The position numbers and the translations under genes were made by a program. 64,000 bases of DNA from Macrotrachela quadricornifera (taxonomy: Eukaryota > Rotifera > Eurotatoria > Philodinida > Philodinidae). Numbering within the stretch: position 1 is the first letter of the stretch; the number at the start of each line of letters is the position of its first letter. Positions 4,036 through 46,189 of the stretch are shown piece after piece. Location of the stretch: NCBI GenBank assembly GCA_022393335.1, contig JAJEKB010020897.1, positions 584,550 to 648,549 of the forward strand, in the 5' to 3' direction. The notes beneath the pieces were generated by a model. That model was not told the DNA's origin, did no database searches, and worked only from the letters and a program-made list of their open reading frames with translations.

Positions 4036-4435
4036 NNNNNNNNNNNNNNNNNNNNNNNNNNNNNNNNNNNNNNNNNNNNNNNNNNNNNNNNNNNNNNNNN
4101 NNNNNNNNNNNNNNNNNNNNNNNNNNNNNNNNNNNNNNNNNNNNNNNNNNNNNNNNNNNNNNNNNNNNNNNNNNNNNNNNNNNNNNNNNNNNNNNNNNNN
4201 NNNNNNNNNNNNNNNNNNNNNNNNNNNNNNNNNNNNNNNNNNNNNNNNNNNNNNNNNNNNNNNNNNNNNNNNNNNNNNNNNNNNNNNNNNNNNNNNNNNN
4301 NNNNNNNNNNNNNNNNNNNNNNNNNNNNNNNNNNNNNNNNNNNNNNNNNNNNNNNNNNNNNNNNNNNNNNNNNNNNNNNNNNNNNNNNNNNNNNNNNNNN
4401 NNNNNNNNNNNNNNNNNNNNNNNNNNNNNNNNNNN
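4036..4435. other. Assembly gap of exactly 400 N
   Basis: A run of 400 N. A second run of exactly 400 N occurs at 61935-62334, so both sizes are probably scaffolding conventions. Sequence joins across it are not reliable at base level. Confidence 0.98.
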
Positions 4436-13400: not shown

Positions 13401-14784
13401 ACTGCACCGAGCACAGCGTCATCATTCACCGTATCATATCAAATAAATTCAACAGATTATCGATGTCGTATTATTGTTCGAGATTCAGCATTGCTAGTAT
13501 TCACATCAACTATTGTAACTGTTACGAATGCTTATTGTGCTCCACTTGTGGTTAGTTGTAGTGCCCAAGATCTCATAGATAATTTTATATTGGCAGGTGA
13601 ATCAGGTACTCAAATTAATAATTTGGCAACTGGTTGTGCTGCTAATAGTTATGATAACCGTACCTCACAATCAATCACTTTGTTTGAAAACAAGCTCTAT
13701 ACAGTTTTAGTATCAAGTCAATATGCTTCAAATCAACAATTTGCTATTTGGATTGATTTCAATCATAATTTTATATTCGAGTCATCTGAAAGAGTAGCAT
13801 ATCAATTATTAAATTCGACTTACAATACACCAGTGATTATAACCATTCCATCCATCAGTTCAGGAGGTAGACTTGGTACTCATCGTATGAGAGCAACAGT
13901 AGCCTATGCAAATACACCGAATCCTTGTGCTGCATCTATTACATATGGTGAAACACACGATTATACAGTGAATATTATAGCATATACACGTAAGTTCAAT
14001 TATCTTTCATAAATATTTAAACTAACAAAGGTATACGTGGCAACTGTTGATAGCACATGATATTTCTATTTCTTCCATTAGATAAATATACTGAAAAAGT
14101 GTGATTGAAGTGCATATAATCTATTTATATCTTTCATAATCTAATATACAAACAGAAAATTTTAATTACACTTACAAATGATTATCTAAATTTTGAGTTG
14201 TGCATCATAGTCGTAGATCTTGTAAAAGAAAGTTTGAAGTATTTGTTTTTTGGATGATCGTAAAAAATGTAATTACATAAGTTTGTGATCTATCTATTCT
14301 ACGAAAGAAAAAGATAATTAAATTGTTTCATCGATAAGCTTCTGTTAATCTATTAATTTATTGCTTGATTGTAGCAAATTATATAACATACTCGCAAAGC
14401 TTCACAGGTGGAGTAATTTCAACTAGTCAATGTTCAGCATGGTCAACTTTCGTTGCTCAGTTAACAGTTCGACCTTACACTTTATTAACACTTCGTGGTT
14501 CACGTGATACAGTTGGAGTAACAGTAACTGATCCATTTATCATAGGTAATCTTGCATTAGCATTAAGAACATCAACAGCATATGGACCAATGATATCGAA
14601 TTCTCTTCCATGGGCTGTTGGTTTATGTGGAGGTGGATATGAATTGAGTGCAAGTGGTGCAGTATGTCTTTGTGTAACAGGTTATAATGTACGACCCTGT
14701 ATTGGCAATTCAAATTGGGGTGGAACAAATGGTACAACTTGCAGTGCAGCAACTCAGACAATAACAGTGATATTTCAATATTAA
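10416..14784 (+). CDS. Type II membrane mucin with Thr/Ser repeat and GEVED domain
   Basis: Three exons, 10416-10665, 11788-13989 and 14375-14784, join in phase to about 953 residues. The N-terminal part has a basic stretch (KKEEKKRKIKR) followed by a hydrophobic segment (IFFIILGVLFGCGIIATAIA), giving a type II anchor with the bulk outside the cell. Next is a ~450-residue low-complexity region of S-(E/Q/D)-T-T-T-T-T heptads, a dense O-glycosylation substrate. After it come an Ig-like cysteine-containing segment (SFCSCANFSL onward, WESSIMGQNVWANI) and a GEVED-type domain (FAIWIDFNHNFIFESSERVA ... GETHDYTVNI). Exon 3 encodes a C-terminal beta-rich module ending in a small Cys cluster. A surface coat or adhesion role is inference. 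The first ~30 codons before the basic stretch are doubtful; the true first exon may lie further upstream. Confidence 0.75.
11900..13225 (+). repeat. Coding minisatellite, 21-bp unit (Ser-acidic/Gln-Thr5)
   Basis: About 60 imperfect copies of a 21-base unit, of the form ACATCAGAGACAACAACAAC, inside exon 2 of the mucin gene. The variable second residue is Glu or Asp in the first two-thirds and mostly Gln in the last third (after about 12830). Synonymous third-base variation shows the array is not freshly copied. Runs of valine in the opposite frame are its shadow. Confidence 0.95.
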
Positions 14785-27700: not shown

Positions 27701-27810
27701 TCCAACAAACAGCTCAGTAAATCTATAAAACGAATGCTATTTATCAGTAAAAGAACCATGATAGTGGAAGAATAAAAAGCTTCAATAAACTATTTTTAGT
27801 TTCTACATCG
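24721..27810. other. Intergenic, 3.1 kb, holding one foldback element
   Basis: Apart from the MITE at 25381-25714 this is AT-rich DNA. A minus frame at 26285-26524 (79 codons, cysteine-containing, GC-richer than its surroundings) might be an exon or a transposon relic but has no recognisable motif. The last 60 bases before 27811 include an acceptor-like TTTTTAG at 27794-27800, so the phosphatase gene may have a short upstream exon here. Confidence 0.45.
25381..25714. mobile_element. Foldback MITE, 334 bp, long imperfect arms
   Basis: The left arm (from CTTAAGAGAGATCAGACTAA at 25381) pairs with the reverse complement of the right arm ending at 25714 over roughly 150 bases with a small central spacer near 25545. 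For example TAAATTCTGTATTAAAATCA at 25436 matches the reverse complement of the segment near 25625-25645. The arms differ by scattered substitutions and small indels, so it is an old insertion. No coding capacity; borders are approximate and no target duplication was resolved. Confidence 0.7.
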
Positions 27811-30800
27811 ATGGATAAGTCACCTCCAATTACCGATGATACAATAATGAGTGATCCTTCTCTAATCTCAAAATATTGGTCTAATTTACGTCCATATGCT
27901 GATAATCCTGCGAATTTTTTTGGTGTACTTGATACTGGTTTACCGAAGGGTTGTCAAATTGAGCAGGCTCATGTCTTACACCGACATGCTAAACGTTATC
28001 CAGTCTTACCTGAATTTCATTACATGGAAACACTTGAGAAAAAAGTAAATCAAATGCGTGATAAATTCACAGGTCCATTATCATTTATGAACACATGGAC
28101 ACTTCGACTTGGAGAAGGCTTATTATTAGGACAAGGATTAAGTGACGAATATGAATCAGGTGCAAACTTTTGGGCTAGATATGGACGTCTTTTATACAAT
28201 GCTCCAGCAGGTCAACCCATATACAGTGATGTTGGTCAAAAAAAACCATTCTTTAGATGTAATGATGTAAAACGTATCTACGATAGTGCTCGTTTATGGG
28301 CTGAAGGATTTTTTGGCTCAGAAAATACAACAAATAAATATACACTTTTAGTAATGCCACGTTCTAATCCAAATAATACATTAGGAAGTTACGCTTCTTG
28401 TAATAACTTTGCTAAAGCTTCTCCACCATTTAATGATTATTCAAATGTCTATAGTATACCTCTTCCATATTTCTTAACCAATGCATCAATTCGTCTTTCA
28501 TCTTATACTTCATCAAAATTAAATTTTACATTTGAAGATCTCTTTGGAATGCAAGCATTATGTGTTTATGAATATGTTGCATTAGGTTCTAGTGATTTTT
28601 GTTCATTATTTACATTAAGTGAATGGCAAGGATTTAACTATGTCCTTGATTTATTCTTGTATGATGGTTTTTCATTTGGACAACCTGGAGGTAGAGCTCT
28701 TGGAATTGGTTATGTGCAAGAATTATTTGCACGATTAAAGAATGAACATATCACTGTAAGTCATTCAAGTGTTAATACTACACTTTCTTCATCTCCCAAT
28801 ACATTTCCTTTAAATCAACCATTTTATATGGATATGGCTCATGATGTTACTATTATTGGTGCACTTACAGCATTATCATTAGATTATTTTCGTCGAAATT
28901 TATCAATGACTGAATTTCCTACTCCAGAAGATCGACATTTTCGTGGTTCATATGTAACCCCATTTGCTGCTCGTTTAATTACAGAAAAAATTGGTTGTGT
29001 TTCACCCAATCCAATTCCGACCAATTTTACATCTACTCAATACACAACAATACAGTATGGATATTTACGAGAATCTGCTACATATAAATTTATTAGAATG
29101 AGACTAAATAATGCTATTTTACCATTAAATACTATTCGAGGTGGTCTTTGTAATATTACCAGTAGAACAGATGGTCTCTGTCCATTAGAAAGTTTCCTAG
29201 CAACTCAAGCCGATGCTAATCGTCGAGCAAATTATGAAGTACTTTGCTTTGGTTCATACAATATCACCAATAATACGTTTAATGGAGATGGAACATTTTT
29301 TCCAAGCTCGGTTACATTGACCCCTGCACCATCACCAAAAACCGACGATATAATAATAAATAATATTCCTTTGATATCACAATATTGGGCCAATATGCGG
29401 CCTTATACAGATAATCCTGCGAACTTTTTCGGTGTCCATGATACTGGTTTACCGAAGGGCTGTCAAATTGAGCAAGCTCATGTGTTACATCGACATGCTA
29501 AACGTTATCCAGTCAACCCTGAACATCCTTACATGGAAGCACTTGAGAAAAAAGTAAATGGAATACGTAGTAAATTCACAGGTCCATTATCATTCATGAA
29601 TACATGGACACTTCGACTTGGAGAAGGCTCATTATTGTCACAAGGATTAAGTGATGAATATGAATCAGGTGTAAAATTTTGGGCTACATATGGACGAATT
29701 TTATTCAATGCTTCCGTAGGTCAAACTACATACAACGAAATTGGTCAGAAAAAGCTACTCTTTAGAAGTAATGATGTAGGACGTATCTATGACAGTGCTC
29801 GCTTATGGGCTGAAGGATTTTTTGGCTCAAAAAATACAACAAATAAATATACACTTTTGGTAATGCCACGTTCTAATCGAAACAATACATTAGCAAGTTA
29901 TGGTTCTTGTACCAACTTTGACATTAACTTTGCAAAAGGTCGTCTACCACTCGGCGGTCTTATGAGCCTCTATAGCATACCTCTTCCATATTTCTTATCA
30001 AAAACATCAATTCGTCTTTCCTCCTATACTTCAGGAGCACTTAATTTTACTCTTGAGGATACATATGCTATGCTATCATTATGTTTGTATGAATATATTG
30101 CATTAGGTTCAAGTGATTTTTGTTCATTATTTACATTAAGTGAATGGCAAGGATTTAACTATGTCAATGATTTATTTTTGTATAATGCTCATTCATTTGG
30201 ACAACCTACAGGCAGGGCTCTTGGTATTGGTTATTTGGAAGAATTAATTGCACGATTAAAAAATGAATATATTACTGTAAGTCATTCAAGTATTAATACT
30301 ACACTTGATTCATCTCCCAATACATTTCCTTTAAATCAACCATTTTATATGGATATGGCTCATGATTTCAATATTTATAATTTAATTACAGCATTATCAT
30401 TAGATTATTTTCGTCGAAATTTATCAATGACTGAATTTCCTACTCCAGAAGATCGAAACTTTCGAGCATCATATTTGACTCCATTTGCTGCTCGTTTAAT
30501 TACAGAAAAAATTGGTTGCATTTCATCTAATCCAATTGCAACAAATTCTACATCTACTCAATATACACCAACACAATATGGTTACTCACCAAAATCTGCT
30601 ACATATAAATTTATTAGAATAAGACTAAATAATGCTATTTTACCATTAAATACTATTCGAGGTGGTCTTTGTAATATTACCGGTAGAACAGATGGTCTTT
30701 GTCCATTAGAAAAATTTCTAGCAAGTCAAGCTGATGCTAGTCGTCGAGCAAATTATGAAGTTGTTTGCTTTGGTTCATACAACATCACTAATAATACGTT

Positions 30801-30843
30801 TAATGGAGACGGAACATACTTTCCAGGTTCAAAGTTTACGTGA
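27811..30843 (+). CDS. Tandem-duplicated histidine acid phosphatase (phytase-like)
   Basis: One uninterrupted frame of 1010 residues made of two ~500-residue copies of a histidine acid phosphatase domain. Copy 1 carries the catalytic RHAKRYP (Arg58-His59) with the preceding GLPKGCQIEQAHVLH, and the proton-donor motif MAHD (His344-Asp345). Copy 2 repeats both (Arg561-His562; His851-Asp852), offset about 503-507 residues. Both therefore look competent. The block YW-x-x-(L/M)RPY-x-DNPANFFGV-x-DTGLPKGCQ resembles fungal phytases and acid phosphatases more than animal MINPP1. Many N-x-S/T sites suggest secretion, yet no signal peptide follows the ATG at 27811; an upstream exon after an acceptor at about 27800 may supply it. 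Likely role is releasing phosphate from phytate or other phosphomonoesters. Fungal transfer is inferred. Confidence 0.87.
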   Translation: MDKSPPITDDTIMSDPSLISKYWSNLRPYADNPANFFGVLDTGLPKGCQIEQAHVLHRHAKRYPVLPEFHYMETLEKKVNQMRDKFTGPLSFMNTWTLRLGEGLLLGQGLSDEYESGANFWARYGRLLYNAPAGQPIYSDVGQKKPFFRCNDVKRIYDSARLWAEGFFGSENTTNKYTLLVMPRSNPNNTLGSYASCNNFAKASPPFNDYSNVYSIPLPYFLTNASIRLSSYTSSKLNFTFEDLFGMQALCVYEYVALGSSDFCSLFTLSEWQGFNYVLDLFLYDGFSFGQPGGRALGIGYVQELFARLKNEHITVSHSSVNTTLSSSPNTFPLNQPFYMDMAHDVTIIGALTALSLDYFRRNLSMTEFPTPEDRHFRGSYVTPFAARLITEKIGCVSPNPIPTNFTSTQYTTIQYGYLRESATYKFIRMRLNNAILPLNTIRGGLCNITSRTDGLCPLESFLATQADANRRANYEVLCFGSYNITNNTFNGDGTFFPSSVTLTPAPSPKTDDIIINNIPLISQYWANMRPYTDNPANFFGVHDTGLPKGCQIEQAHVLHRHAKRYPVNPEHPYMEALEKKVNGIRSKFTGPLSFMNTWTLRLGEGSLLSQGLSDEYESGVKFWATYGRILFNASVGQTTYNEIGQKKLLFRSNDVGRIYDSARLWAEGFFGSKNTTNKYTLLVMPRSNRNNTLASYGSCTNFDINFAKGRLPLGGLMSLYSIPLPYFLSKTSIRLSSYTSGALNFTLEDTYAMLSLCLYEYIALGSSDFCSLFTLSEWQGFNYVNDLFLYNAHSFGQPTGRALGIGYLEELIARLKNEYITVSHSSINTTLDSSPNTFPLNQPFYMDMAHDFNIYNLITALSLDYFRRNLSMTEFPTPEDRNFRASYLTPFAARLITEKIGCISSNPIATNSTSTQYTPTQYGYSPKSATYKFIRIRLNNAILPLNTIRGGLCNITGRTDGLCPLEKFLASQADASRRANYEVVCFGSYNITNNTFNGDGTYFPGSKFT

Positions 30844-33530
30844 TTTTATTGATTTTTAGAGACACTACACTTATTTTGTCATTTTTTCTGCATTAGAAAC
30901 ATATACTTCGATGATGGGATTTTAGAAGGAATCAAGTAGTTTTTGTAATTTTTTTTTCTTTTAGAAGTTAATAAACTATCCTTATTCTTCTTATAATTAA
31001 AATGTAACTGAATCATAGCGAACCTCCAAAACATATTTCATCATAACAAAAATTTTCCTTATATTTTGACTAAAGACGGAATCAAAGAGAAATAGATTAC
31101 GATGAGAGTCATTTGTGTTTGTATTCTTCTTTCGGTAGTCTTGGAAAAATAGTGTTTATCTTTTTAATATAAAACAAAATATCGAAAAGTTCATAACAAT
31201 GATTTGGTTATAACTAATATTTAACGTTGTATATTTAAGTTGGAGTTGACTATTACATCCAATACGATTCGGACAATTAATAGATACTTTGAAAGATTAG
31301 ATAATAAAGAAAAATTTTACATTTATATGCCGTTCATGTTAGGATTATTTCATTAAGTCAAATATTTCCAATCCACTAGATTGTAAAACATCTTTTTTGT
31401 TCTAAAAAAAAGAATTCATAACTTCTTTCTATAAAGACTAACTAATTCTTAATGAACAGCAAGCATTGTTAGAAGATCTATTCATAATTAACGCGGATGA
31501 CGAGTTCATAACAGAAGTGAATTACAAAATATGAAATTTCTATGTATAACACAATAGGCTCATTTACTAGAACTGGAAAGAATAAATAGATGATCAATAT
31601 AATATTTATATAAATTCCATACAGGATCTATAGATATTGAATAGAGAATCCGTTTATGTTTTATATAGAATGTATCAAGTTCTACTTAAGCCTACTAAAG
31701 TGTACCGGAGTTTATCAGTAACTATGTTTTTGTCCTCATTCTCACTTCTATGATGGCAGATCCTAATAGATATTTGTACACTCCGATGCACTATTTAATA
31801 AAAGTAATAGAAACTGAATTATTCAGAAATTCATTAGTTTTCAATTACTTTGTAATTTATTTTTGGCATGAAATGCGAGTCTTTTTTTTATATGTTTACT
31901 TAAAAGAGAATTTATTGGCATTTAGTATAAAATGATTCCAAATTGTATAATTTATCGGTGCTGAGACATTTGCAAATTATGTAATGTTACAAGTATTTTC
32001 ACTTACCGACGTTTTATTATGATTATTAACTAGTTTTTCCATATGGAATGTTAGTATTTGGTTTGAATCTCTTTAGCGTTGATTCACTTTAGTAGCTAAG
32101 GCACGAACGATAGTAAATCATACAGAAGCCAATAAGTTCTGTATACCAGAACCAATATATAGGATCAAAATTCAATAATATTTGAGAAAAAACAAAATAT
32201 TCATCATCTTCCATAGAGATAAGCTTTTAAAAACAAATCTGTATTGATCGTCAAGATACATATTGTAGACATAAAACTAGGTCATCTATTGCTGAAATCT
32301 GAGAAGACTAAGTAGGAAGAAAATAAAGATAGATTTTCGACGATTACATGGCTAGTAATTCATGTCATGAAGTAAACCCCTTATGAATTATACACCATTG
32401 AATAAAGCTTATCTTGAGGGTGAATAGGTTAATCGACTCAGTTAACGAAACGAGTGTTTTTGAAAAAAACTGAATCAATTGCTAACATCCTTTATGTATG
32501 AATTTTTCTCAATATGCGCTTTTCTTTGGTATTCATTAGAGAAATTTATATAAGTTAGCTACATTTTCAATTTTCTCTTTGTTGATTTTTTTTTGTGTTA
32601 TAGGAGCAACGTTCGTTCATGAATCAGTACTATCCACACGATTGTCTTGCATTGAAATAAAAACATAATCTTGCTATTACAAGTGATACATTTTATTTTA
32701 TGCATTTAGTTTAAATAATATCCGATCTATATCTCAATTTATTTAAAAAAAATTGTTAACTGAAAGATTTTTTATTTATTTATTAGTAATGAGTATTTCA
32801 AAAGGAATGTACTACATTCTTATCTTTCTTTCTCTACAAAATGGTATATTTTCTATTAATATAAGTAATATTCAAATAAATAGTTCAAAATAAACATTTC
32901 TTTTAAAATAGATTTTTATCAAAATCTTTATGATTTTATGTTTCAATTCTTCAGTAAGATTATTTTTTAATATTGTGTAGATTATCGATTGATTGGTTAA
33001 CGGACAGTTTTGGAGCGATTTGAATCACATAGGCCAAAGCAAAAGTTTTCATTCCAGTGGGACCCTAGACTAAAGAATTACTTTTGAAGGCTGAGTTTTT
33101 ACCAGTTACTTATATTAGATACGCTTTGACCATTATTTTGGTATATTTGCAAATGCCTAGTTATTTATAAAAAAGAAACCCATATGAAAGAAATTCTTTT
33201 CATCTTCAGGCGTTCGTCAATATACGAGCATTGTCAATGATATGAAGCATAATTATAAGAAAAAAAAAGAATATCGTTGTGTTTCGTTCGTTCGTTACCA
33301 TTTATTTCTTTTTCTCTTTATTTTAATGTTTTTCGTATCAATTACACGAAGCTTATGAATAATAATAGCATAATAATATAATGCGTAGAAGAAAAAATTG
33401 CCAAAAAAACAAGAGAAATGACACAAACATAATTTATTTTTTTTCCATTTCTAAACAGGTTATACTGATTTAACGTATCATTTTGATATCATATATAATT
33501 TAGATCACTTACTTACGGGGCATATCAGGA
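30844..33530. other. Intergenic, 2.7 kb, no supported gene
   Basis: AT-rich sequence with poly-T runs and several AATAAA words just after the phosphatase stop (30969 onward). The frame at 31750-31935 lacks protein-like composition. No inverted or tandem repeat of note. Confidence 0.5.
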
Positions 33531-34450
33531 ATGAAGAAATCCTCAGTCATTGCTTCAGTAGCACAATCTGACAATACACTCATCAAACAGCATTCGCCTA
33601 CATATCTTCGTATTGCTCAACATTTCCTTCTTATATGGTTGGACTCAAACATTAATGAATTAAACGATAATTATCGTAACTCGATCATTCAACTAAGACG
33701 TATTGTTAATACTGTCGAAGTTTTTACCGATGTTGATCAATGTATCGATTTTCTCACTGAAATTCAGGACGAAAAAGTATTCATGATCATAGCTGGCACT
33801 CTCGATCAATTTATAGTGCCTCTCATTCATGATGTATATCAGCTAGATTCGATCTGTATATTTTGTGAAAATAAGACAATCCACGAACAATGGGCGAAAG
33901 GTTGGGCAAAAGTGAAAAATGTTTTCACTCAAATTAATTCTATTTTTGAATTACTTGAGCAAGCCGCACGACAATGTGATCAAAATTCTATCTCAATGAG
34001 TATTATACCGTCGAGTGATACATATATTAGAAATTTTAAACAACTCGATCCATCATTCATGTATACGCAATTACTTAAAGATGTCGTTTTCGAATTCGAA
34101 TATAATGAAATCATCTTAAAGGCTTTCACCACCTATTGTCGCGATCAATACGCTGAAAACAGACATGAATTGAATACTATTGATAAATTCGAGCAGGAAT
34201 ATGAATTTCATTCACCAATATGGTGGTATAGTTATGCAACTTTTCTCTATTCCATGCTCAATCGAGCTTTGCGCCTTCAAGAACTTGATACAATCCTTAT
34301 GATGGGCTTTTTTATTCGAGCTTTACATCAACAAATTGCACAACTGCATTCAGAACAATTGAATGATTATTCTACACAGCTATGTACTGTTTATCGTGGC
34401 CAAGGTGTGTCAAATACTGAATTTGAGAAAATAAGAAAAAGTCCAGCACT
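33531..34450 (+). pseudogene. 5' part of an ART-TPR gene, cut by a transposon
   Basis: About 307 host codons (the frame itself stops at 34463, a few codons inside the transposon). The N-terminal ~210 residues are an alpha/beta domain (LRIAQHFLLIWLDSNINELN ... CIFCENKTIHEQWAKGWAKV) that precedes the catalytic domain in the rotifer-type ADP-ribosyltransferase-TPR proteins. The start of the ART domain follows, with TVYRGQGVSN carrying the Arg (residue 289) of the R-S-E triad that binds NAD. The frame then ends within the terminal inverted repeat. The continuation of the same protein lies 9.8 kb away at 44232. The conserved Ser-containing strand expected between the two parts is in neither piece, so about 15-20 codons are missing. 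Function before disruption: probably protein mono-ADP-ribosylation; the target is unknown. Confidence 0.85.
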
Positions 34451-34850
34451 TGCAAAATTCTAACCCAGCAGAATTCAGAATTTTATTATTTATCACTTCT
34501 TACATCGTTGCTGCTCTGAATTCTGCTGAAAATTAGAATTCTACTTTCAATACATATAAAAATATATTCAAGTCGATGAGATGCATTGAAATTCTGTTTG
34601 CTTTTTAGAATTCTATTTAAAATTCTGCTGTAAAATTTGAATTCTTCGCAGAATTCAGAATTTTGTTATTTGTCATTTTTTATATCGTTACAGTTCTAAA
34701 TTCTGCTGAAAATTAGAATTCTAATTTTAATACATATATAAATGTATTCAAGTCGATACGATGTATTGAAATTCTGTTCGAATATTAGAATTCTTTAAGA
34801 CTTCGCTGGTTCTTTAAAATATTGCAGAAAAATTAGAATTCTTATCAGAT
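34451..34850. repeat. Left subterminal repeats of the KDZ element
   Basis: Two copies of a ~185-190-base unit in tandem, starting about 34463 and 34650. Each contains GCAGAATTCAGAATTTT..., AAAATTAGAATTCTA and TATTCAAGTCGAT blocks. The palindrome AGAATTCT recurs many times. Such arrays are usually transposase binding sites; here that is inference. Confidence 0.75.
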
Positions 34851-35717
34851 TTTGTTTTGGTGTATATAACCATACCTTTATATGTCTGTGTATATAATGA
34901 TTTGGAATTTCACTCAAACTTGGCATTTGATTATAATTTTGTTCAATAATTTATTAAATCAGATCGGCGTTAAAATTATAAAATAACGTTTGATCGTTTT
35001 CAGCCTTTACCTCTGCTTGTAATTATAAAAATATCGACAGAATTCTATAGAATTCTATTTAAAAACAGTAATACATGAAAGATCAATATTGTATTCCATG
35101 TTTTGTCGAAACCGATTTTATTTATTTAAATTTTAAATAAAATTATGCCTTTATCGAGGTGATTATATTGCACATACAAGATAAATGATATATAATTTCA
35201 GCAGAATTTTCTCTCCTTTCAAATTTGATTTAAGACTTTGTTTCAAACATTACAATAGTTTGTGCAAATGATTTATTAATTATGTTATGAATATCAAATA
35301 TTAGATTCTCTTTCGAACTTTTATATAATCAACAAATTTTGAAGAAAAAATATCGCATGGTATTAAAGCTGAATCTAAACTTTATTTTCTTATCGCTTGA
35401 AAAAAGGAAAACAATCTAACACACGCCGCATTCGGGGTATATGTATCACAAATAAACATGCGAACGAAAAAAAGAAACGAAGAGAGAAAGAAAAACAGGG
35501 AGAAATATATCATATACTGTTGTTAATACAATTCTTCTGTAGTATATAGAAAAGAATATTTATTAGTCATTGTATGTTTATAGTTTAAAGTTGGAGGCTA
35601 ATTTCCATTTTATTCATATTATGATGAGAGGATAAATCGTGTGTAAAATGGTGTACATTAAAGATTTCATTATTTAAAGAATAATTTTATAGTTATTTAT
35701 TTTATAGATTATTCATT
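34851..35717. other. Non-coding left part of the transposon
   Basis: AT-rich sequence between the subterminal repeats and the first internal gene. It should contain the promoter of that gene, but no distinct element can be picked out. A purine-rich stretch lies at 35461-35505. Confidence 0.4.
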
Positions 35718-38447
35718 ATGTCTGTTGTAAACTTTAAATTTATTTACAAAAATGTATTACGTGCTGCTGAATTATCGATTCCGATAAACATCATATTGAG
35801 TGATGGTTTAGTCAATATTATTGAATCTTGGCAGCCAGTACTTTGTATTAATTCTTTATATAGTGCTATTGCATTGTTTAATATCATCGCAACAACATTA
35901 GAATTTAGTTCCGTAGCACGCTTATCTGATGATCGACTGAATATACCATTAAATTTTTATAATATGGTTATTGCAAGAAGCTGTACTACAATAACGATTA
36001 CGAGTGATATTAACTCTAATTCTTATTTTATTTCTTTTTAGCATACGGCAAAAGCGACATTACAAAGTTAATTCGAGGTGTTCTTGATTCTATTTGCATT
36101 GCTAAAGGACAAACTATGGACTTATATCTGGACGAATTTACACGAGCTGGCCTAATTAATTGCCTCGACAAATGCACAAAAATATACATGACCGACGAAG
36201 CGGACATAACATTCGTGGAAGCAGGTTTATTTAATGGTTTTCCAAAGTCATCGCCGGAAACCAACTGTCGATGTATATTTCTATCTGTTGTAATATTAAA
36301 TTAAAATGTATTTATTGTTGTTTTCAGCACTTGTCATGATTTTATTCGACCGGATGTTGTCCCCTTATATCCGGCGATTAGCAAAACAATTGGTGGTGGT
36401 TGAAAAAAGCAAGCTGAATCTTTTGGTATTTAGATATTGCATTTGATCCGATAAAATTAGATACATATATTTTTTTTTAATTTTAGGGTCTATCTACTGG
36501 GGAGTTGATGGCAACAATTGTCTGTCGATTCAAGTCTGGTGGATCCTGGGATCCGATGATCAGCAGATTCTGTTGGTGGGTATTAGATGGTCCACCAATA
36601 TTAGAACCGGTGATAGAACCACTTTTAGATCGTTCGATTCCATCTATCGAACAATTTTGTTTTGCATGCAGTATGATTAATAATTGTTGTTTTAAATATG
36701 ATGATAATGCTTGGTTACGCATTGTCGAATGGGGAAATTCTATGAGAAAAAGAAGTATGTCGTATTTTTTTAAAACAAATATGTTGTATTATATTGTGTT
36801 TTTGCAGGCTATGATAACAGAGAGAATGAATTATTATCAGCCTTATTTGGAAAATCAGTTCAACACGTGCATAGATATGCTGCTTTCATACAAACCATGG
36901 AATTTGGTTATAATATATGTTCAGTTTATCTTGAACGTTTCAAGGAATTTCCATTATCTGGAACTATTGATAAAGATTTTATCGATCGTGTTAAACAAAT
37001 ATTTAGTGAATTATTTTTTGATCAAGCTGATGTTAATAATCAGCATCGTCGGTTTAAAATTTGTGATGAAGTTGTTCTTCGTGCTATTGATCTGGTTTCG
37101 GGTTTGCTACAACAAATGAAAATATTGATGGATGATAGTAACGCACCAATTTGGAATGGAAGTCAAACGAAATCAATAGTCGTATTACCTATTAATAACG
37201 AGCAAAATTTTGATAATGGAAAAAATACGAAAAAACAAATTTATGGTATGCATAATTACATGTTTAATATACTTATCCTTATTTTTGTGTTTTAGTTGAA
37301 TATGTATCTATCGAGAAGTTGGAACGTATTGCTGTTGAAATTTTACTTTTTCCGAGTTTATGTTTTATTGAAACTCAATTGCACAACAACAACTCTTTTA
37401 TCCATAATGTATCAAAAAATGATCGTGGTGTAGTTTTGAAACATTTAATAAAATGTGAACTCCTTTTATGTGTTGAAAAAGGAATTAAAACTAGCAGAAA
37501 ATATACCGCAGTTTATATAAAACAGTTACCAGCTTGCGATGCTGATGGAAATATTGATTCGGATCAAAAATTGTTGTTTGAAGAAAAATTAAAGGCATTT
37601 GCAAATTATAATTCAAAATTGAACATCGAAAAATATTTAAATAGCAATAATTCCATTTCTCTTGGTGGTACTGGTGTTGTTACCAATGAATTAGTGCAAA
37701 TTTTGTCAATGGTTGAATACATGAAGATAGATTTAAGTCCATTATACAATTTAAAATCAGGTAAAATTATTTATTATTTTTCTATAATGCTTTTTGCTGA
37801 TTTATTTTTAGGTAGAATAAAACAATCAGATACGAATAATAAAAATGAAGTAATACATGAAAAATTTACATGTATGTTATATGTACACGAACTATTATGA
37901 ATACATTTTATTTTTCTTCATGATATAGGTGATTCTCATATTATAACCTCATCTGATGAGATGGTATTGATAGATGGTGTAGTTGATGATGCAAGCATTT
38001 TTGATGATGTCATCAATGAAGCTGCAGTGAATGAAAAAGAAATAAATTTTATACTCAATTCTGAATTCGATAGTAATTTATATATATTTTTTTTTAAAGT
38101 TGTCATATATCTATTTTATAGATTTCGTTGTTATTGATGGTGAAATTAATACTAATGAAAAAGTAAATGATTTAGTGAATGATGTGGTCAATAATGAAGC
38201 TGTAGCTAATATTAGTACAACAATCGTGGAATTACCGATGATTGAAAATGATAAAGCTGAGAATTCAAACAACAAACAAAAAAAAAGAAAAAATACTGAA
38301 GCACAATCAGGTGTAGAGTCGAAAGGAGATTCTGATATGGCATTTTGGTCTCCACCAGCATGGCGTTTACGATCCAAAAAACGTTATAATAAAGCCACTA
38401 AAAATCGAACTACTGCTTGTGATAAGAACAATCGAAACAAGAAGTAA
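35718..38447 (+). CDS. Transposon-borne P-loop ATPase-like protein (DUF3987-like)
   Basis: Nine exons: 35718-35982, 36042-36266, 36328-36425, 36487-36754, 36808-37245, 37296-37760, 37812-37871, 37929-38072 and 38122-38447. They join in phase without a stop to 762 residues. The second exon begins SYGKSDITKLIRG, a Walker A-like GKS/T, followed ~45 residues later by TKIYMTDEAD, a hydrophobic strand ending in Asp-Glu like Walker B. A KSGGSWDPMISR block follows, then helices (HVHRYAAFIQTMEFGY). This order resembles the DUF3987 family of helicase/primase-associated P-loop proteins. The C-terminus is acidic, then strongly basic (KKRKNTE ... RSKKRYNKATKNR), a likely nuclear signal. The donor after exon 2 (GTCGAT) is weak. 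A DNA-dependent ATPase helping transposition is inference. Confidence 0.65.
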
Positions 38448-38794
38448 ATAAGTGTTTCATTTGATTATATCATCATGTTTCTTTATTGTTATGCAGCTTG
38501 TTTCATGATTTTTCTAGTCGTATTTTCACTAACATAAATAGTTTATTTGATTAGCCTTTTAAATGATGGTTATTGATATATTTCATTTTTGCTTTTGTTA
38601 TTTTAGATTTTTTATAATCTATGTATATATCTTTATGTTCAAGATGAAAGAATACTTTGATCTTTAGTTTATATATTGTTATATTTGTTCTTAAGTGGGC
38701 TCTTCATAATGAAGAATTGGAAATTTTTGGATATTTTAATACAATATTTATTTTGGTAATATGTTTTAGATAATTGGCGTTAGTAACTTATTTT

Positions 38795-40562
38795 ATGGAG
38801 CTGTTAAATGAAGGCAGTATTGGGGTAGGCTTCTAATTTATAATGTATTTTGAAATTATTTTTGCATGATTTATTTAGAAAATATTGCGTGGCGAGGAAT
38901 TAAATTTTCCTATTGTATTACTAGTAGAGGTATTAAATAATCTGTCATTTTTATACATATTAAGAAAGTGATATTATATAGGAAATATCTATTTTGTACG
39001 TTACTGATGATGGTAATGGTGAATATGGTATGCCGAATGTCCGTTTGCGTTTATCGGATTCAATCGATTCTTTCTTCGGTAAGTCTTATTATCTAATATG
39101 CAATTGTTTATATTTATTTTTCTATCAGGGTTTGTATGTAAGACGAATTTGGTGAACCAGCTGACACCAGGAACTTTAGTTTGTATCGAAGCTCTCAATG
39201 TGGAATCATTAGATGGAAATAAGTGTGTATTTTTATTACCATTTTTGATAACTCTCATTTAGAGTAATATTTTGAAGAATTTTGTGCAAAATCGATAAAA
39301 TGAATATCGTTCATGATAAAAAAAATGATATTGATACACAAGATAGTTGCATGCCAATTGCTTTGGGCAAGAATGAATTGATCAGTTGCGTTATGGGAGA
39401 AGAACTTGTATTAATTCGTTTAGCAGATGTTGATCTTGGAACTGGCAAAAAGTAAATATTTGGAATTTTAATAATTTGCATGCTTTGCTCGTTATAAACA
39501 TTGATTTTAACATATTAAAAACTGTTTTGCTTTCATATAGGAATATCATTCGTGGACGAGTTATATCGAAGAGTTCTGTGCGAACATATGATTTAGATCA
39601 ACATAAATTGTTTTATTTTGATATCATGGATGAGTCAGGTACCTTACGTGTAAAAGCGTTTGATCGACAATGTGATCACTTATTCCAAAGTGTCTGTATT
39701 GGAGAAGTAAAATATACTATTTTATAAGATTTTTTTTATAAACGAATGTTATTTTGATTTAATGTAGATGATAGAATTATCGAAATTCTATGTGGTTGTT
39801 GCAAACAAAAAGTACAATCGGCTGAATAGTGACTACGAGATAGTTGTGCAAGAATATACGAAATTTTTAGTTATACGTGATGTTGCACCAATATCTGTTC
39901 GTCCGGTGTTTCAATTCCATTTATTGAAAGATATAGAGTTATTGCAGATCGATGGTCTTTATGGTTAGTAGAATAATTATGTTGAGAATGTCGAAATATA
40001 AAATTTTCCAATTTGATCTATAGATGTAATTGGTATTATCAAAAGTGTTAGTCCTATTGCAGTGGTTCACCAGCGAACAACTTGCAAGCCACTTTCTATT
40101 GTACGTTTACTACTGTTCGATTCAACTGGAAATATTGAAGTCAGCTTATGGAATGATAAGGTACGAATATCAATTAAAGTTTTGACATTATTGGTAGTGT
40201 AAATAATTAAATTACTAAGTTATATTATATAGTCAAAATTTTATTTTGTATTTTGTTATGTAGGCAACAAATTTTATGGGACGAAAAAATGATATTCTCG
40301 CTGTCAAAGATTTTCGACTACGTCTTTATCATGGTGAGTGTTTATAAGAGTGAAATTATATTTATTTTGGTGTTATATTTTCAGATAAGTATTCTTTGAA
40401 TAGTGTGATGGACAGTGACTTGTTTTTAAATCCATCATGTGAAGAAGCAGATAAACTTAGATCTTTAATTGCCACTTCAGCAGTAGCCAATGATGAGATT
40501 CAAAGTAAGTTGTTAAGTCTTTTTTTACGGAATTATTTTTCAGTTAATTTATTTTAGATTAA
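38795..40562 (+). CDS. Transposon-borne RPA70-like ssDNA-binding protein
   Basis: The short first exon MELLNEGSIG and the next (KILRGEELNFPIVLLVE, then NVRLRLSDSIDSFFG and LTPGTLVCIEALNV) match the N-terminal OB fold of replication protein A large subunit. The exon from 39541 (IIRGRVISKSSVRTYDLDQH ... FYFDIMDESGTLRVKAFDRQ) is DBD-A. Exons at 40023-40333 (DVIGIIKSVSPIAVVHQR, IVRLLLFDSTGNIEVSLWND, ILAVKDFRLRLYH) are DBD-B. The frame stops at 40560-40562, so the zinc-ribbon DBD-C, needed in RPA1 for trimerisation, is absent. Introns are 40-110 bases. One junction (about 39222-39300, between the N-domain and DBD-A) leaves a TGA in frame under the simplest model, so there may be a missed splice site or a lesion. 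Probable role: coating single strands during element replication or integration. Confidence 0.75.
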
Positions 40563-40736
40563 AGTATACAACACCATATTATGACGCATTTATTGACAGT
40601 TATTGGAACATTTTAAGTAACTGTTTAAAAAATTTCTATTTCACTGTTATTGTTTTTTGTTTTGATGCGTTCATATATTTCATTCTTTTTATATTATAAG
40701 TGTTGTCCTTGTTTTCTTTTTAGATTTTTATAGTGA

Positions 40737-41381
40737 ATGTTTTACACTATATTTATGGGTCAGAAGATATCTTCCGATGAATATTTGGTGCATTCGATGA
40801 AGAAAATGCGTTTAACCAATTCTAATGCTGAACCTATTAAAGAAAAAGATTCTGTTGTCGTTGCAATTTTAGACATTCCATCACCATCATCACCAATTCG
40901 AAAATCAGCAGGTGGTGAATATGATATCATGAAACGTGCAGTTAATGCTCCATTTGAGAATGATATTATTTCAGGATTCTATGATGAAAATAAAAATACA
41001 ACGACAATCCATGATATTAGATCTGCTGATACTTTGACTAAATTAATTTACGATACACCAATTCTTGATGGTAAATAGAATCTCTTTACTTTTGAATTAT
41101 TTTCAATCCTACTTTGAATAGATAAATCATCATCGCCGATTATCCTATTCAATGATGAAACCGCTCGTTTTGATGCTAGCTATACTGATGAAGAACTAAT
41201 ATCATTTATGTTATTGCACGAAAAAACATCAATGATAAAACCAAGTAATATTAAATATAAACTGAAAAATAGCTTTCATAATGAAAAGCATTCCAGAGTT
41301 GATCATGCAGTAAATTTTAAGCATCTTAAATATTTAGAACCATCTGATGAAGAAATTATTAAACATTTTAAAAGTTTATAA
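40737..41381 (+). CDS. Small transposon-encoded protein, unknown
   Basis: Two exons, 40737-41070 and 41122-41381, join in phase to 197 residues. The 50-base intron has GTAAAT...AATAG ends. The protein is hydrophilic, Ser/Asp/Lys-rich, without recognisable domain. It lies between the RPA-like gene and the transposase. It may be a separate accessory protein or the spliced N-terminal part of the transposase, whose first exon lacks a good ATG. Confidence 0.5.
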
Positions 41382-41416
41382 ATATTTTAGATTATATGTA
41401 TAGTTTTAATTGGTAA

Positions 41417-43615
41417 TTGAAGCTCGTTTATGTTATTGAACTCATCAAAATAGAATCACGTACTAGTTTGGAAGAAATTGCTGTTATCTCTTATCAATTA
41501 AAGTATTTTACTGTTGCTGAATTATTTTTTATTTTACATGAAAATGCAAGGTGGTCTGCTTTGGATGTCAATCGGATTAAAAAAATTACTGATGGTTTTC
41601 GGTATAAATATGGTGCGAATCATACTTATGAACAAATTGAAACAGTTATTAAACTATTGGGCAATACATATTTGCAAACGTTACCTATGCAAAATGAAAT
41701 GTCTTTATTACATGTGTCGTATAGTAAATTGCTTGATCCTGTTATTGAACCATTTTCATTTGTTTGTTATTTATGTAAAAAATCATTAGATAAACTTAAT
41801 ACAAAACAGCGTTCAATAAAAATCTACTGTGCAAATGGATCTGTGGTTTCAGGTATAAATTTAGAAATGCTTCATAATTTTGTACCGCTATACAAAATTT
41901 CATTCTATTTTTAGGTAGCATGATGATTCTTGTATGCACTCATAAGGATAGTATCATACATCGGAAATCATCTGTAGTTCGTATGCTTTCAAACTTTGTT
42001 CATTATGAAAATAAACATTTATATTCACATGAAAGTATTTATTATGGATCGTATGTGTATGTAGGTGGAGATGTTGCAATTGAAAGAGCTGTTGTCGACA
42101 GATTTACTGTTGAGTTAATTCATACTGGATTACCTATTCATGGTTTAGTCAATAGTTTGAACCAAGAAGCTTTCAATAACGGACATTTACAAACAAGTGA
42201 AGTCGATGAACATATATTAAGCAATATTTTATATCGATTTCTTTATATTCAACTGTATCTTAGCATGAAAAATTCGCATGTCTCTACACCTGCCCGTCTT
42301 GCTGAGTATGACGAATGGGCTTGGAAAGAATTTCCTCGAGTTTTATCGTGTTTTACCTATTTATGGATGAATCACAAGGATATAATAGGACCATGTAATG
42401 ATCAATGTTCAAAATGTCTCGTAATAGACGGACACCAAAAATGTCGTAGACGAATTTGTGGTTTCAAGGATGTACGAATTGATACAGAAGAGATGAATCA
42501 AATAGTTATTGGATGCTGTCGTACTCCTATTTCCAAAAGTAGATATTGTGAAATGCATAAGGACTCTATTCCAGATTGTGGTACTGTTCTGGAAGAGCAA
42601 ACTAATGCAGTTAGGAAGTCATTAAAACGAATGAAATTATCATTAAGACAAGAAAAACTGAAGAAAAATGATAAATTAAATGCTACAAATTGCAGAACAA
42701 GAAGAGAAAAAAATGACAACTACATTAAAAAATGTAATCGGTCGTTTGGCCTTATTGCTCTAATATACAATTGTAAAATTATAACAAGTTTCAGCGAATT
42801 ATTTCGTTCAGAAACTATAAAAGAAATTATTAATTTATTTTGTGCGTGTATTAGAGGTATGCATCATTATAATAATGAATGATTTATTTGTATAATGAGT
42901 AATTGTATACTTTTTTAGTGTCCAGCCGCCTAGCACCTACATTAGTTTATGACGACGGATGTCACTTGGTGCAATACATACGAAATCATATTGGACGTGA
43001 TTTACATCGTACAACTGCTTCAGAGCTGCTTGCATCTACACCTATTAGTGTAGATAGAATGCACTTTAAGAACCACGTGGGCCGTTTTTGTCGATCAGAA
43101 ATGAATCCTGATAAAAACAGATGTAAGAAAAGTTTTTCTTTTTTTCATATATGCTTATATATGATATTTATATTATTATCAGTATTAGATAACATAAATA
43201 CGGAGGCAGCTGAACAATGCTTTTCGTGGTTACGGAAGTATGCGTCCATTATTTCGAATATGAATTGGCTTCGAGCGCCTATATTCATAATAATATTATT
43301 CAATTTGAAAAATTTATCGTACGTACGACGCAAACCATCAGATACGTTTGCTGTAGTGAGTATTACTGAATTTAATAAAAAATATACTTTATCGATTAAA
43401 ACACATTTTTTTCTATTATTTAGTATCATTCAGTGCCAAACGTATCAAATTTTTCATTATGTCATTCTGCCGATGCAATAATTCAAGACAACAAAATAAA
43501 TAAACAAATGATTTTCAATACTCCCATAAATAACGATCGCAATTTTGAACCTTTCGATCTTCCACTCTCAACCACAGAATGGAGCAAAAAAGTTCGCGAA
43601 TTAAAGCACAGCTGA
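41417..43615 (+). CDS. KDZ-type transposase with cysteine clusters, five exons
   Basis: Exons about 41417-41852, 41915-42856, 42919-43122, 43183-43355 and 43424-43615 join in phase. The N-terminal region has a FVCYLCKKSLDKL ... YCANGS cluster (CxC5-like). The middle has CNDQCSKCLVIDGHQKCRRR-IC ... GCCRTPISKSRYCEMH, matching the CxC6-type cluster known from KDZ transposases. The C-terminal part LVYDDGCHLVQYIRNHIGRD, then FKNHVGRFC and NTEAAEQCFSWLRKYASIIS is the KDZ core, with candidate catalytic Asp and Glu. No ATG fits the first exon (a stop lies directly upstream), so the true start must be in an earlier exon. DNA-cutting and joining activity on the element ends is inferred from family. Confidence 0.82.
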
Positions 43616-44231
43616 GAACAAATCTACATTTTCCATCAATTTAATATTCATTTGTCATCGCCATCTGATCAATACTCTCTTATGGCTACAAATATATTCA
43701 TGACATTCTTTTTACAAGATAAGCATTGTAACCAGAGATTTAAAAAAAATAAAACTATACATATGATGGAAAGGTGCACTAATATAAATTCATTCTACAA
43801 TGAGAAAACATGTTGTATTAAAATTCTGTTTATTTTTTAGAATTCTATTTAAAATTCTGCTGCAAAATTTAAATTCNNNNNNNNNNTTCTTAGCAGAATT
43901 TAATTTCGCTTGGTTATGTGTAGATATATTTAAATTCATGTGTTGAATTAAAATTCTGCTTATTTTTTAGAATTCTATTTAAAATTCTGCTGTAAAACTT
44001 AAATTCTTAGCAGAATTTTATTTTGTTAGATTATATATTGGTATATTAAGTTCATATGATGAATTAAATTTCTGTTTGCTTCTTAGAATTTTATAAAAAA
44101 TCGTGTTTGTATTTTAAAATTCTATTAAAATTCTGCTGTAGAATTAGAATTCTTAGCAGAAGTGAGAACAATTATGGTATAAAGAATGATAAGTTACAAA
44201 ATTCTAAGTTCTGCTGGATAAGAATTTTGCA
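43616..44231. repeat. Right subterminal repeats of the KDZ element
   Basis: From about 43815 the sequence is built of a ~130-140-base unit containing AATTCTG(T/C)TTATTTTTTAG, AATTCTATTTAAAATTCTGC and TTCTTAGCAGAATTT. Two good copies and one or two decayed ones precede the terminal repeat at about 44175-44231. A 10-N gap (43877-43886) sits in the first copy. The motifs are the same as on the left flank, so they belong to the element. Confidence 0.75.
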
Positions 44232-46189
44232 GGCCCTCTGCAGACAGTAATGGACGCAATCCTGATTTAATAGGAATTCTCTTTAAAATAACTATTAATC
44301 CATCAGTGACGTTGGTTCCTTTTGCTTTTCTTGATAATGTCAGTTATTACAAGGACTCAGAGAAGGAAATTCTTTTTTCAATGCATACTGTTTTTCGTAT
44401 TGATACAATCAAACCATTAGACAACAATGGTCAACTATGGCAAATAGAACTCACACTGATAAGTGAAAATGATCCACAACTTAGTGCTCTTACTCAACTC
44501 ATTCATAACGAAACAAGAGAACTCCCAGCAATACATCGATTGGGTGTATTAATGATTAAACTAGGCCAGGTTTACAAGGCCGAAGAAATATTCAGGATAC
44601 TGCTTGAGCAAGCATCTGATGACGGTGAAAAAACATATCTTTACTATCAACTAGGATGGAGTAAGCATGAACAGGGCAATTATGTTGAAGCAATTTCATT
44701 TTACGAAAAATCACTTGAATTCTGTCAAAGAACATTTAAACCAGATCATCCATTTTTGTTGATACTCTACAATAGTATTGGTCACGTATATGACAATATG
44801 GGTGAATACTCACAAGCGCTTCTATTTTACGAAAAAATACTTGAAAACCATCAAAAAATTCCTTTTCCTAATCATTCTGATTTAGCTAGTTTCTATAACA
44901 ATATCGGACATGTATACGAAAATATGGGAGAGTGCTTGAAAGCTCTTTCGTTTTATGAAAAAGCACTTGAAATTCGTCAAAGAATTCTTCTTCCCAATCA
45001 TCCCGATTTGGCTACTTCTTACAACAACACAGGAGTTATGTACACGAAAATGGGCAAGTACGAAAAAGCACTTTTGTTTTATGAAAAATCACTTGAAATC
45101 CGTCAAAAAACTCTCCCTCCAAATCATCCTAGTATAGCTATATCTTATAACAATATCGGCAGTACATATGAAGACATGAACGAGTATTCGAAAGCACTTT
45201 CGTTTTATGAAAAAGCGCTCGACATTCGTCAAAATACATTAACTTCAAATCATCCCGATATGGCTATTTCCTACAACAACATGGGTCATGTATGTGACAA
45301 TTTAGGTCAATATGCAGAAGCACTTTCGTTTTATGAGAAAGCACTTGAAATCAAACGAAATGCTCTTCCTCCAAACTATCCTGCTTTGGCCACTTCTTAC
45401 CACAATATTGGAGCCACCTACAAGAACATGAGAGAATACTCCAAGGCGCTATTGTTTTACGAAAAAGCACTTGAAATTCGTCAAAAAACTCTTCCTGCAA
45501 ATTATCCAGATTTGACTCAATCATACGACAGCATTGGCACGATATTTCATGGAATGGGTGAATACGAAAAAGCACTTTTATTCTACAAAAAATCACTGGA
45601 AATCTATCAGAAAACACTCGCACCTGATCATCCTGATTTGGCTATTTTCTATAATAACATTGGTCAAGTATATTATAATACAGGTGAATACGTGAAAGCA
45701 CTTTCGTCCTACAAAATATCACTTGAAATCCTTCAAAAAAATCTTTCTCCAAATCATTCGGATTTAGCTACTATCTATAGCAACATAGGGCAGACGTGTG
45801 ATCAAATGGGCGACTATTCCAAAGCACTTTTATTTTATGAACAATCTATTGAAATTCGTCAAAAAATACTTCCTTCAAATCATTCCGATTTGGCTGTTTC
45901 TCACAACAATATTGGTCACGTGTATTACAGCATGGGCGAGTACTCGAAAGCTATTTCCTTTTATGAAAAAGCACTTGAAATTTGCCACAATGCGCTTTCA
46001 CCAGATCATTTAATACTGGCTATTTGCTACAATAATATTGGCTTAGTGTATTACAGTATGGGAGAACATTCGAAAGCGCTTTCATTTTATGAACAAGCTG
46101 TTGAAATTGGACAAAGTTCGTTAACTCCGAATCATTATCTTCATGAATTATGTAGAAAAGATCTTGAATATCTTAAAGCGAATATGTAA
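44232..46189 (+). pseudogene. 3' part of the split ART-TPR gene: ART end and 12 TPRs
   Basis: The host frame is open from the transposon border (PSADSNGRNPDLIGILFKIT) to a stop at 46187-46189; no ATG stands at its beginning. The first ~60 residues finish the ART fold, with the E-x-E-type motif SEKEILFSMHT that holds the catalytic Glu. After a linker come twelve 42-residue repeats of the kinesin-light-chain type (Y-N-N-I-G-x-x-Y-x-x-M-G-E-Y-x-K-A-L-x-F-Y-E-K-A-L-E-I), residues about 110-620 of the GTG-initiated frame at 44306. All repeats are intact and well matched to each other, so the disruption is recent or this half is still translated from an internal or transposon promoter. The TPR part would bind partner proteins. 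Confidence 0.85.

What the first reader, a model, noticed from the sequence alone, without database searches (positions are those of the whole stretch)
34451..44231. KDZ-type transposon that carries an RPA-like protein and a P-loop ATPase
Between matching terminal inverted repeats lie four same-strand genes: DUF3987-like ATPase, RPA70-like OB-fold protein, a small unknown, and a transposase with CxC clusters and KDZ core. A cut-and-paste transposase alone does not need an ssDNA-coating protein plus a helicase/primase-type ATPase. The combination suggests a replicative or strand-displacement step, comparable to RPA carried by some Helitrons. I know of no description of this gene set in an animal KDZ element, but could not search.
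Basis: partly seen in the sequence, partly recalled or inferred. Interest (0 to 1): 0.93.

Follow-up and report, generated by a model that had tools for sequence, protein, structure and literature searches.

The report
Rotifer transposon carrying replication-type genes
A family of jumping genes in bdelloid rotifers carries, beside the enzyme that moves it, a protein that looks made to coat single-stranded DNA and an ATP-driven helicase-like protein; these extra genes have been kept in place by selection, which suggests that the element brings its own help for handling DNA when it jumps.

Summary
The element spans 34444-44238 (9,795 bp; 101-bp inverted ends, 74/101 matching), seven bases longer at each end than reported. 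It encodes four intron-rich same-strand genes: DUF3987-type P-loop ATPase (764 aa), RPA70-like protein (379 aa, DBD-A/B with the DNA-stacking aromatics, no DBD-C), a 191-aa unknown, and a KDZ transposase. It interrupts a host gene whose other allele is empty and open; 67 bp of target are missing. A second four-gene copy (C4716, layout partly inferred) carries a perfect 8-bp target duplication, as does one short derivative; seven of nine copies with both ends do not. Parts of the gene order recur in C4660 (ATPase-RPA), C4178 (RPA-P3-transposase, a deep clade) and Rotaria gene predictions. dN/dS between the two four-gene copies is about 0.17 to 0.20 for ATPase, RPA and transposase. So the accessory genes belong to the element and are not a one-time capture. 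Most likely they unwind and coat single strands during transposition or its repair; a replicative step is possible but not shown. KDZ elements with passenger genes are known; the answered literature searches found none with RPA. New variant of a known kind.

The parts
34444..44238 (+). whole element, 9795 bp
   Evidence: termini fixed by comparison with other copies; empty allele on C4427
34444..34544 (+). left terminal inverted repeat, starts CAGCACTTGCAAAATTCTAA
44138..44238 (-). right terminal inverted repeat, ends TTTTGCAGGCCCTC
34468..34794 (.). subterminal tandem repeat, 180-bp period, 1.8 copies (left)
43887..44101 (.). subterminal tandem repeat, 116-bp period, 1.8 copies (right); a 10-N gap lies just before it at 43877-43886
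35718..38447 (+). ATPase gene, 9 exons, 764 aa, DUF3987; Walker A ARSSYGKS, Walker B-like MTDEAD
38795..40562 (+). RPA70-like gene, 11 exons (fifth exon starts 39278), 379 aa; DBD-A and DBD-B OB folds, no DBD-C; likeness of its start to the RPA70 N-terminal domain is not significant
40755..41381 (+). small protein P3, 2 exons, 191 aa, no Pfam family; found between RPA and transposase in C4716 and C4178 too
41417..43615 (+). KDZ transposase, 5 exons, 648 aa; no ATG near the 5' end; candidate catalytic residues D317, D471/D472, E538
33504..34443 (+). 5' part of the interrupted host gene (ADP-ribosyltransferase/TPR type; the name is recalled)
44239..46189 (+). 3' part of the interrupted host gene; the empty allele C4427 has 67 bp more between the two parts

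Best explanation
A DNA transposon of the KDZ superfamily, of a bdelloid lineage that has stably carried an RPA70-like single-strand-binding protein and a DUF3987-type P-loop ATPase beside its transposase. Mechanism proposed: the KDZ transposase, probably an RNase H-like DDE enzyme, recognises the ends and subterminal repeats, cuts and joins them with an 8-bp stagger. The ATPase unwinds DNA at the ends or on the transposition intermediate and the RPA-like protein coats the exposed strand, so that gap filling, or a limited copying of the element, can finish without waiting for host RPA. Shown: element, ends, 8-bp duplications in two copies, empty allele, gene set in several copies, purifying selection on all four genes, conserved motifs. 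Inferred: DDE chemistry, unwinding, strand coating, and that they act in transposition.
For: Two four-gene copies (window; C4716) in the same order (the C4716 layout is partly inferred). C4716 has CTGTAGTG on both sides and a 1.6-kb derivative (C4948) has TTATTTTT on both sides. ATPase then RPA in C4660; RPA, P3, transposase on one strand in C4178, whose transposase is, of the relatives compared, closest to Adineta P0020 of a deep clade. Other species, as fused gene predictions: R. socialis P0009 = RPA + P3 + a transposase 60% identical to the window's, R. magnacalcarata P0005 = DUF3987 + RPA, P0018 = ATPase C-terminus + KDZ. dN/dS window against C4716: ATPase 0.17 (first 588 residues), RPA 0.20, transposase 0.20, P3 0.35, at dS 1.16 to 1.61. 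RPA matches human RPA70 DBD-A/B at E 2.5e-26; three of the four stacking-aromatic columns are kept in every copy that could be read there, the fourth in 4 of 5. Walker A is complete in 3 of 4 copies. Phage DNA-helicase family phrog_2373 matches 2 of 8 ATPase relatives, best E 5.1e-6. The top three structural matches of a relative's transposase model are transposases (ISCth4 twice, TnsB).
Confidence: 0.5

Rival explanations
1. The ATPase is a target-choice or transposase-activating partner (as MuB, TnsC or IstB act with their DDE transposases; recalled), and the RPA-like protein is a decoy that competes with host RPA or blunts DNA-damage signalling. Transposition itself is plain cut-and-paste.
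For: Ends with 8-bp duplications in two copies; TnsB is among the structural neighbours; the RPA-like protein lacks the trimerising DBD-C, as a decoy might; KDZ elements in fungi carry genes that handle the host (TET/JBP; passages of PMC12730594).
Against: The phage-library matches of DUF3987 relatives lean to helicase and primase families, not to MuB-type AAA+ proteins; ssDNA-stacking aromatics are kept, which a mere decoy would not need.
Confidence: 0.27
2. Replicative element: the transposase works copy-out/paste-in, with the ATPase as replicative helicase and the RPA-like protein as its ssDNA-binding partner.
For: Best structural neighbour of the transposase is ISCth4, an IS256-family enzyme known for copy-out/paste-in (recalled); the window copy has exact ends with 67 bp of target deleted and no duplication; 7 of 9 copies with both ends lack a duplication.
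Confidence: 0.2
3. Host genes caught once, or a misassembly of unrelated genes between two transposon ends.
For: The window copy alone could not exclude it; the right part holds a 10-N gap; a lone decayed RPA copy exists on C834.
Against: Same order, whole or in part, in C4716, C4660, C4178 and in Rotaria proteins; like intron numbers and similar dN/dS across the genes; empty allele.
Confidence: 0.02

Closest known systems
Zisupton and Dileera (KDZ superfamily DNA transposons; fish, fungi, nematodes, algae)
   Same: KDZ-type transposase, 8-bp target duplications, inverted ends (Zisupton), many introns, large size
   Different: In the passages read, accessory genes are TET/JBP dioxygenases in fungi (PMC12730594) and mostly genes of unknown function in Ectocarpus (PMC12477816); none named there is RPA or DUF3987. 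Pfam KDZ match just below the curated cut-off.
Kyakuja (KDZ)
   Same: transposase superfamily
   Different: 7-bp duplications, 5'-CA..TG-3' termini, no inverted repeats in the families described (passage of PMC12730594); here 8 bp and 101-bp inverted repeats
Helitrons that carry RPA-like genes (recalled)
   Same: a eukaryotic transposon that brings an RPA70-like protein
   Different: Helitrons use a Rep/helicase protein, have no inverted ends and make no target duplication (recalled); here KDZ transposase, inverted ends, 8-bp duplications
RPA70 (RPA1) of eukaryotes
   Same: DBD-A and DBD-B with aromatic ssDNA contacts
   Different: no DBD-C trimerisation domain; 379 aa against 616 aa; N-terminal likeness not significant
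Tn7/Mu/IS21-type transposase plus ATPase pairs (recalled)
   Same: DDE transposase encoded with an ATPase partner
   Different: ATPase here is DUF3987, with helicase/primase-family matches

Membership tests
KDZ superfamily | KDZ transposase domain (PF18758) | tested here: met
   E 2.2e-5, 24.7 bits, just under the cut-off of 26.6; 4 of 19 relatives match at E <= 0.01, best 1.6e-6
KDZ superfamily | KDZ-associated cysteine cluster | tested here: inconclusive
   CxC5 in 1 of 19 relatives (P0012, E 8.7e-5, under cut-off); no CxC hit in the window protein
KDZ superfamily | terminal inverted repeats (Zisupton) | tested here: met
   74 of 101 bases; score 76 against maximum 39 of 500 random pairs
KDZ superfamily | 8-bp target duplication (Zisupton, Dileera) | tested here: met
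   8 of 8 in C4716 and C4948; the other 7 of 9 copies examined, the window included, have none
KDZ superfamily | RNase H-like DDE catalytic core | tested here: inconclusive
Zisupton, Dileera or Kyakuja subgroup | position in a KDZ tree | not tested
Helitron | Rep/helicase protein | tested here: not met
   no such Pfam match in the four proteins
Helitron | no inverted ends, no target duplication | tested here: not met
   inverted ends and 8-bp duplications in two copies
RPA70 | DBD-A/DBD-B OB folds with ssDNA aromatics | tested here: met
   E 2.5e-26 to human RPA70 198-418; aromatic columns F/Y/W/Y (human residue numbers recalled)
RPA70 | DBD-C | tested here: not met
DUF3987 ATPase | Pfam DUF3987 profile | tested here: met
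   26.7 bits, cut-off 27; relative P0005 28.1 bits
DUF3987 ATPase | Walker A and B | tested here: met
   ARSSYGKS and (M/I)TDEAD in the window, C4716 and C3047
replicative helicase | helicase fold or activity | tested here: inconclusive
   phrog_2373 DNA helicase in 2 of 8 relatives; structure model unusable

The most novel reading that the evidence does not exclude
Bdelloid KDZ elements are semi-autonomous in replication: a DDE transposase works with its own helicase-type ATPase and its own RPA-like protein in a copy-out or strand-displacing transposition, a replication kit not described in a KDZ element in the papers that I could search. Target deletions with exact ends, as at the window site, would be by-products of it.
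Probability: 0.22. Interest if true: 0.88.

Novelty: new variant of a known kind. Interest (0 to 1): 0.7.

Why it matters
DDE transposons are held to leave strand handling and gap repair to the host (recalled). A lineage that has kept, under purifying selection, its own ssDNA-binding protein and a helicase-type ATPase makes it testable whether eukaryotic cut-and-paste elements can bring their own replication or repair step. Bdelloids, which repair massive DNA breakage after drying (recalled), are an apt host for that. The gene set also gives a marker for annotating low-copy elements, which repeat finders are said to miss in bdelloids (passage of PMC5718144).

Tried and rejected
RPA as a broken gene: my first splice model had an in-frame stop, read as X; a better acceptor removes it, and with that model the C4716 copy aligns without a frameshift.

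Single capture or misassembly: rejected (see rivals). Joining P3 and transposase into one protein: four splice options keep the frame open but none has, in my judgement, a good acceptor; left open.

ATPase structure: model pLDDT 30, discarded, no fold search made with it. Foldseek of the transposase model: nothing at E <= 0.001. Sequence search of solved structures with the transposase and ATPase profiles: nothing at E <= 1. Rfam on five loci of the C4716 segment: nothing at gathering score.

Rows not counted: loci with one end at a contig edge or running into N (C5402/C5403, C2575, C3385, C1669), one end only (C4769, C4660), C4465/C4675 (same flanks in both, degenerate right end), and places listed that I did not fetch.

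Not answered: empty-site tests for three short derivatives, genome-wide searches with the transposase, ATPase and RPA proteins (many tries, latest) and with the left-end pattern. So copy numbers are lower bounds, and whether C4178 has the ATPase is unknown. Paper searches timed out; answered ones are 9, 40, 41, 133 and 136.

Full report
What is there. The window lies in a 450-Mb assembly of 5,695 contigs. Between 34444 and 44238 lies a 9,795-bp element with 101-bp inverted ends. With GT-AG introns of 49 to 103 bases removed it encodes, on one strand, an ATPase of 764 aa in 9 exons, an RPA70-like protein of 379 aa in 11 exons, a protein of 191 aa in 2 exons and a KDZ transposase of 648 aa in 5 exons. 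These are models; no transcript data were at hand.

Ends and insertion site. Nine loci examined have both ends. Two have a perfect 8-bp direct repeat at the exact boundary: CTGTAGTG at C4716 and TTATTTTT at C4948. The other seven match at 1 to 3 of 8 positions; shifted controls reach at most 6. Eight bp is what Zisupton and Dileera make (passage of PMC12730594). The window copy has none. Its host gene has an empty allele on C4427 (97% and 91% identical on the two sides) with an open frame through the site; that allele holds 67 bp which the window lacks, exactly between the element's ends. So the insertion, or a later event at one end, removed 67 bp of target.

Is the gene set part of the element? 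Yes. The C4716 copy has all four genes: transposase, P3 and RPA open in frame, and an ATPase with a stop, a frameshift and a nested insertion. The stretch 4447044-4492196 that holds it is circularly permuted: its two ends are the two halves of the element, each ending in the same nested element (218 bp, 99% identical, inverted), with at least 11 kb of N below and 21 kb above (4472401-4474099 was not fetched; N may be gaps or withheld sequence). The order is therefore inferred from the matching duplications and the complementary halves; a collapsed tandem duplication or a circle would give this picture. C4660 has a left end, the ATPase, then RPA, then a break. C4178 has RPA, P3 and transposase on one strand: RPA 159 of 359 identical with one frameshift, 3.1 kb not fetched between P3 and transposase, and the transposase nearest to Adineta P0020 (54%, against 41% to the window's). 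On C834 only RPA was found in 30 kb. Outside this genome, gene predictions that run neighbours together show the same links: R. socialis P0009 (RPA, P3, transposase in order), R. magnacalcarata P0005 (DUF3987, RPA) and P0018 (ATPase C-terminus, KDZ; E 2e-12). P0018 and P0020 lie in a group well split from the window's clade in an unrooted FastTree, so the association with ATPase and with RPA is older than that split, or was gained more than once.

Selection. Between the window and C4716 copies dN and dS are 0.28 and 1.61 for ATPase (residues 1-588), 0.25 and 1.24 for RPA, 0.23 and 1.16 for transposase, 0.41 and 1.18 for P3 (Nei-Gojobori). ATPase and RPA are as constrained as the transposase. 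Synonymous sites are near saturation, so the ratios are rough. Other copies are decaying: RPA on C834 has 2 stops and 3 frameshifts; ATPase on C3047 has a stop and a frameshift, and on C4660 3 stops and 2 frameshifts.

Mechanism. Steps shown: ends, duplications in two copies, empty allele, conserved gene set, selection. Steps inferred: DDE cutting and joining; ATPase unwinding; RPA-like coating; use in gap repair or copying. I put 0.5 on assistance in strand handling, 0.2 on a truly replicative mode, its bolder form, and 0.27 on regulation or target choice.

Known or new. KDZ elements are known to be large and to carry passenger genes: TET/JBP in fungi (PMC12730594, passages), mostly genes of unknown function in the giant elements of Ectocarpus (PMC12477816, passages). 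The Pristionchus paper on Zisupton does not hold the words accessory or helicase in its main text (PMC9297572, term count and passages). A review that treats bdelloids names Zisupton/KDZ only as an example of new superfamilies (PMC5718144, passages). Papers with KDZ + replication protein A + transposase: 0; Zisupton + RPA as whole words: 0; none of the 20 listed of 24 papers with at least two of KDZ, DUF3987 and transposon holds KDZ and DUF3987 together; of 12 papers with at least three of bdelloid, transposon, replication protein A, KDZ and Zisupton, only PMC5718144 holds bdelloid and KDZ. The library holds only openly licensed papers, and Repbase was not searched. So: new variant of a known kind.

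Other members. Short derivatives with both ends (1,606 and 1,283 bp, and four of 208 to 210 bp) suggest that the ends were mobilised in trans; of these only the 1,606-bp one has the duplication.

Noticed in passing
G000:C4716:4447044-4492196 (L009, L010, L032, L035, L044): A 45-kb stretch whose two ends are the two halves of one transposon insertion (8-bp duplication CTGTAGTG on both inner flanks), bordered by long N runs: looks like a collapsed tandem duplication of about 33 kb of host DNA plus the element, or a circle.
   Followed up: partly
L009 and L010 at the ends of that stretch; L011 about 4106-4378: A nested element with inverted ends of at least 218 bp (99% alike) sits in the ATPase C-terminal part of the C4716 copy; a G-rich insert lies in the same part of the C4660 copy.
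   Followed up: no
L021 (C1314) and L024 (C4286): Two 208-bp derivatives share more than 30 bp of left flank, including a splice-donor-like GTAAGT, but differ on the right.
   Followed up: no
window 11778-14012: Threonine-rich repeat ORF, 744 aa, built on about 60 copies of a 21-bp unit.
   Followed up: no
window 27751-30843: One open frame of 1,030 aa that holds two like halves (acid-phosphatase-like; name recalled): a tandem duplication in one frame.
   Followed up: no
P0006 (R. magnacalcarata): Gene prediction that fuses a protein with C2H2-like fingers to the DUF3987 ATPase: perhaps a second kind of carrier, or a nested element.
   Followed up: no
P0027 (labelled Sphagnum troendelagicum): A KDZ protein of the bdelloid group in a moss assembly, perhaps rotifer contamination.
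   Followed up: no
G000, host gene of the insertion: The interrupted gene belongs to a large family: 40 and 126 matches to its two flanks, the window itself included and some places counted several times; only 40 candidates were scored each time.
   Followed up: no
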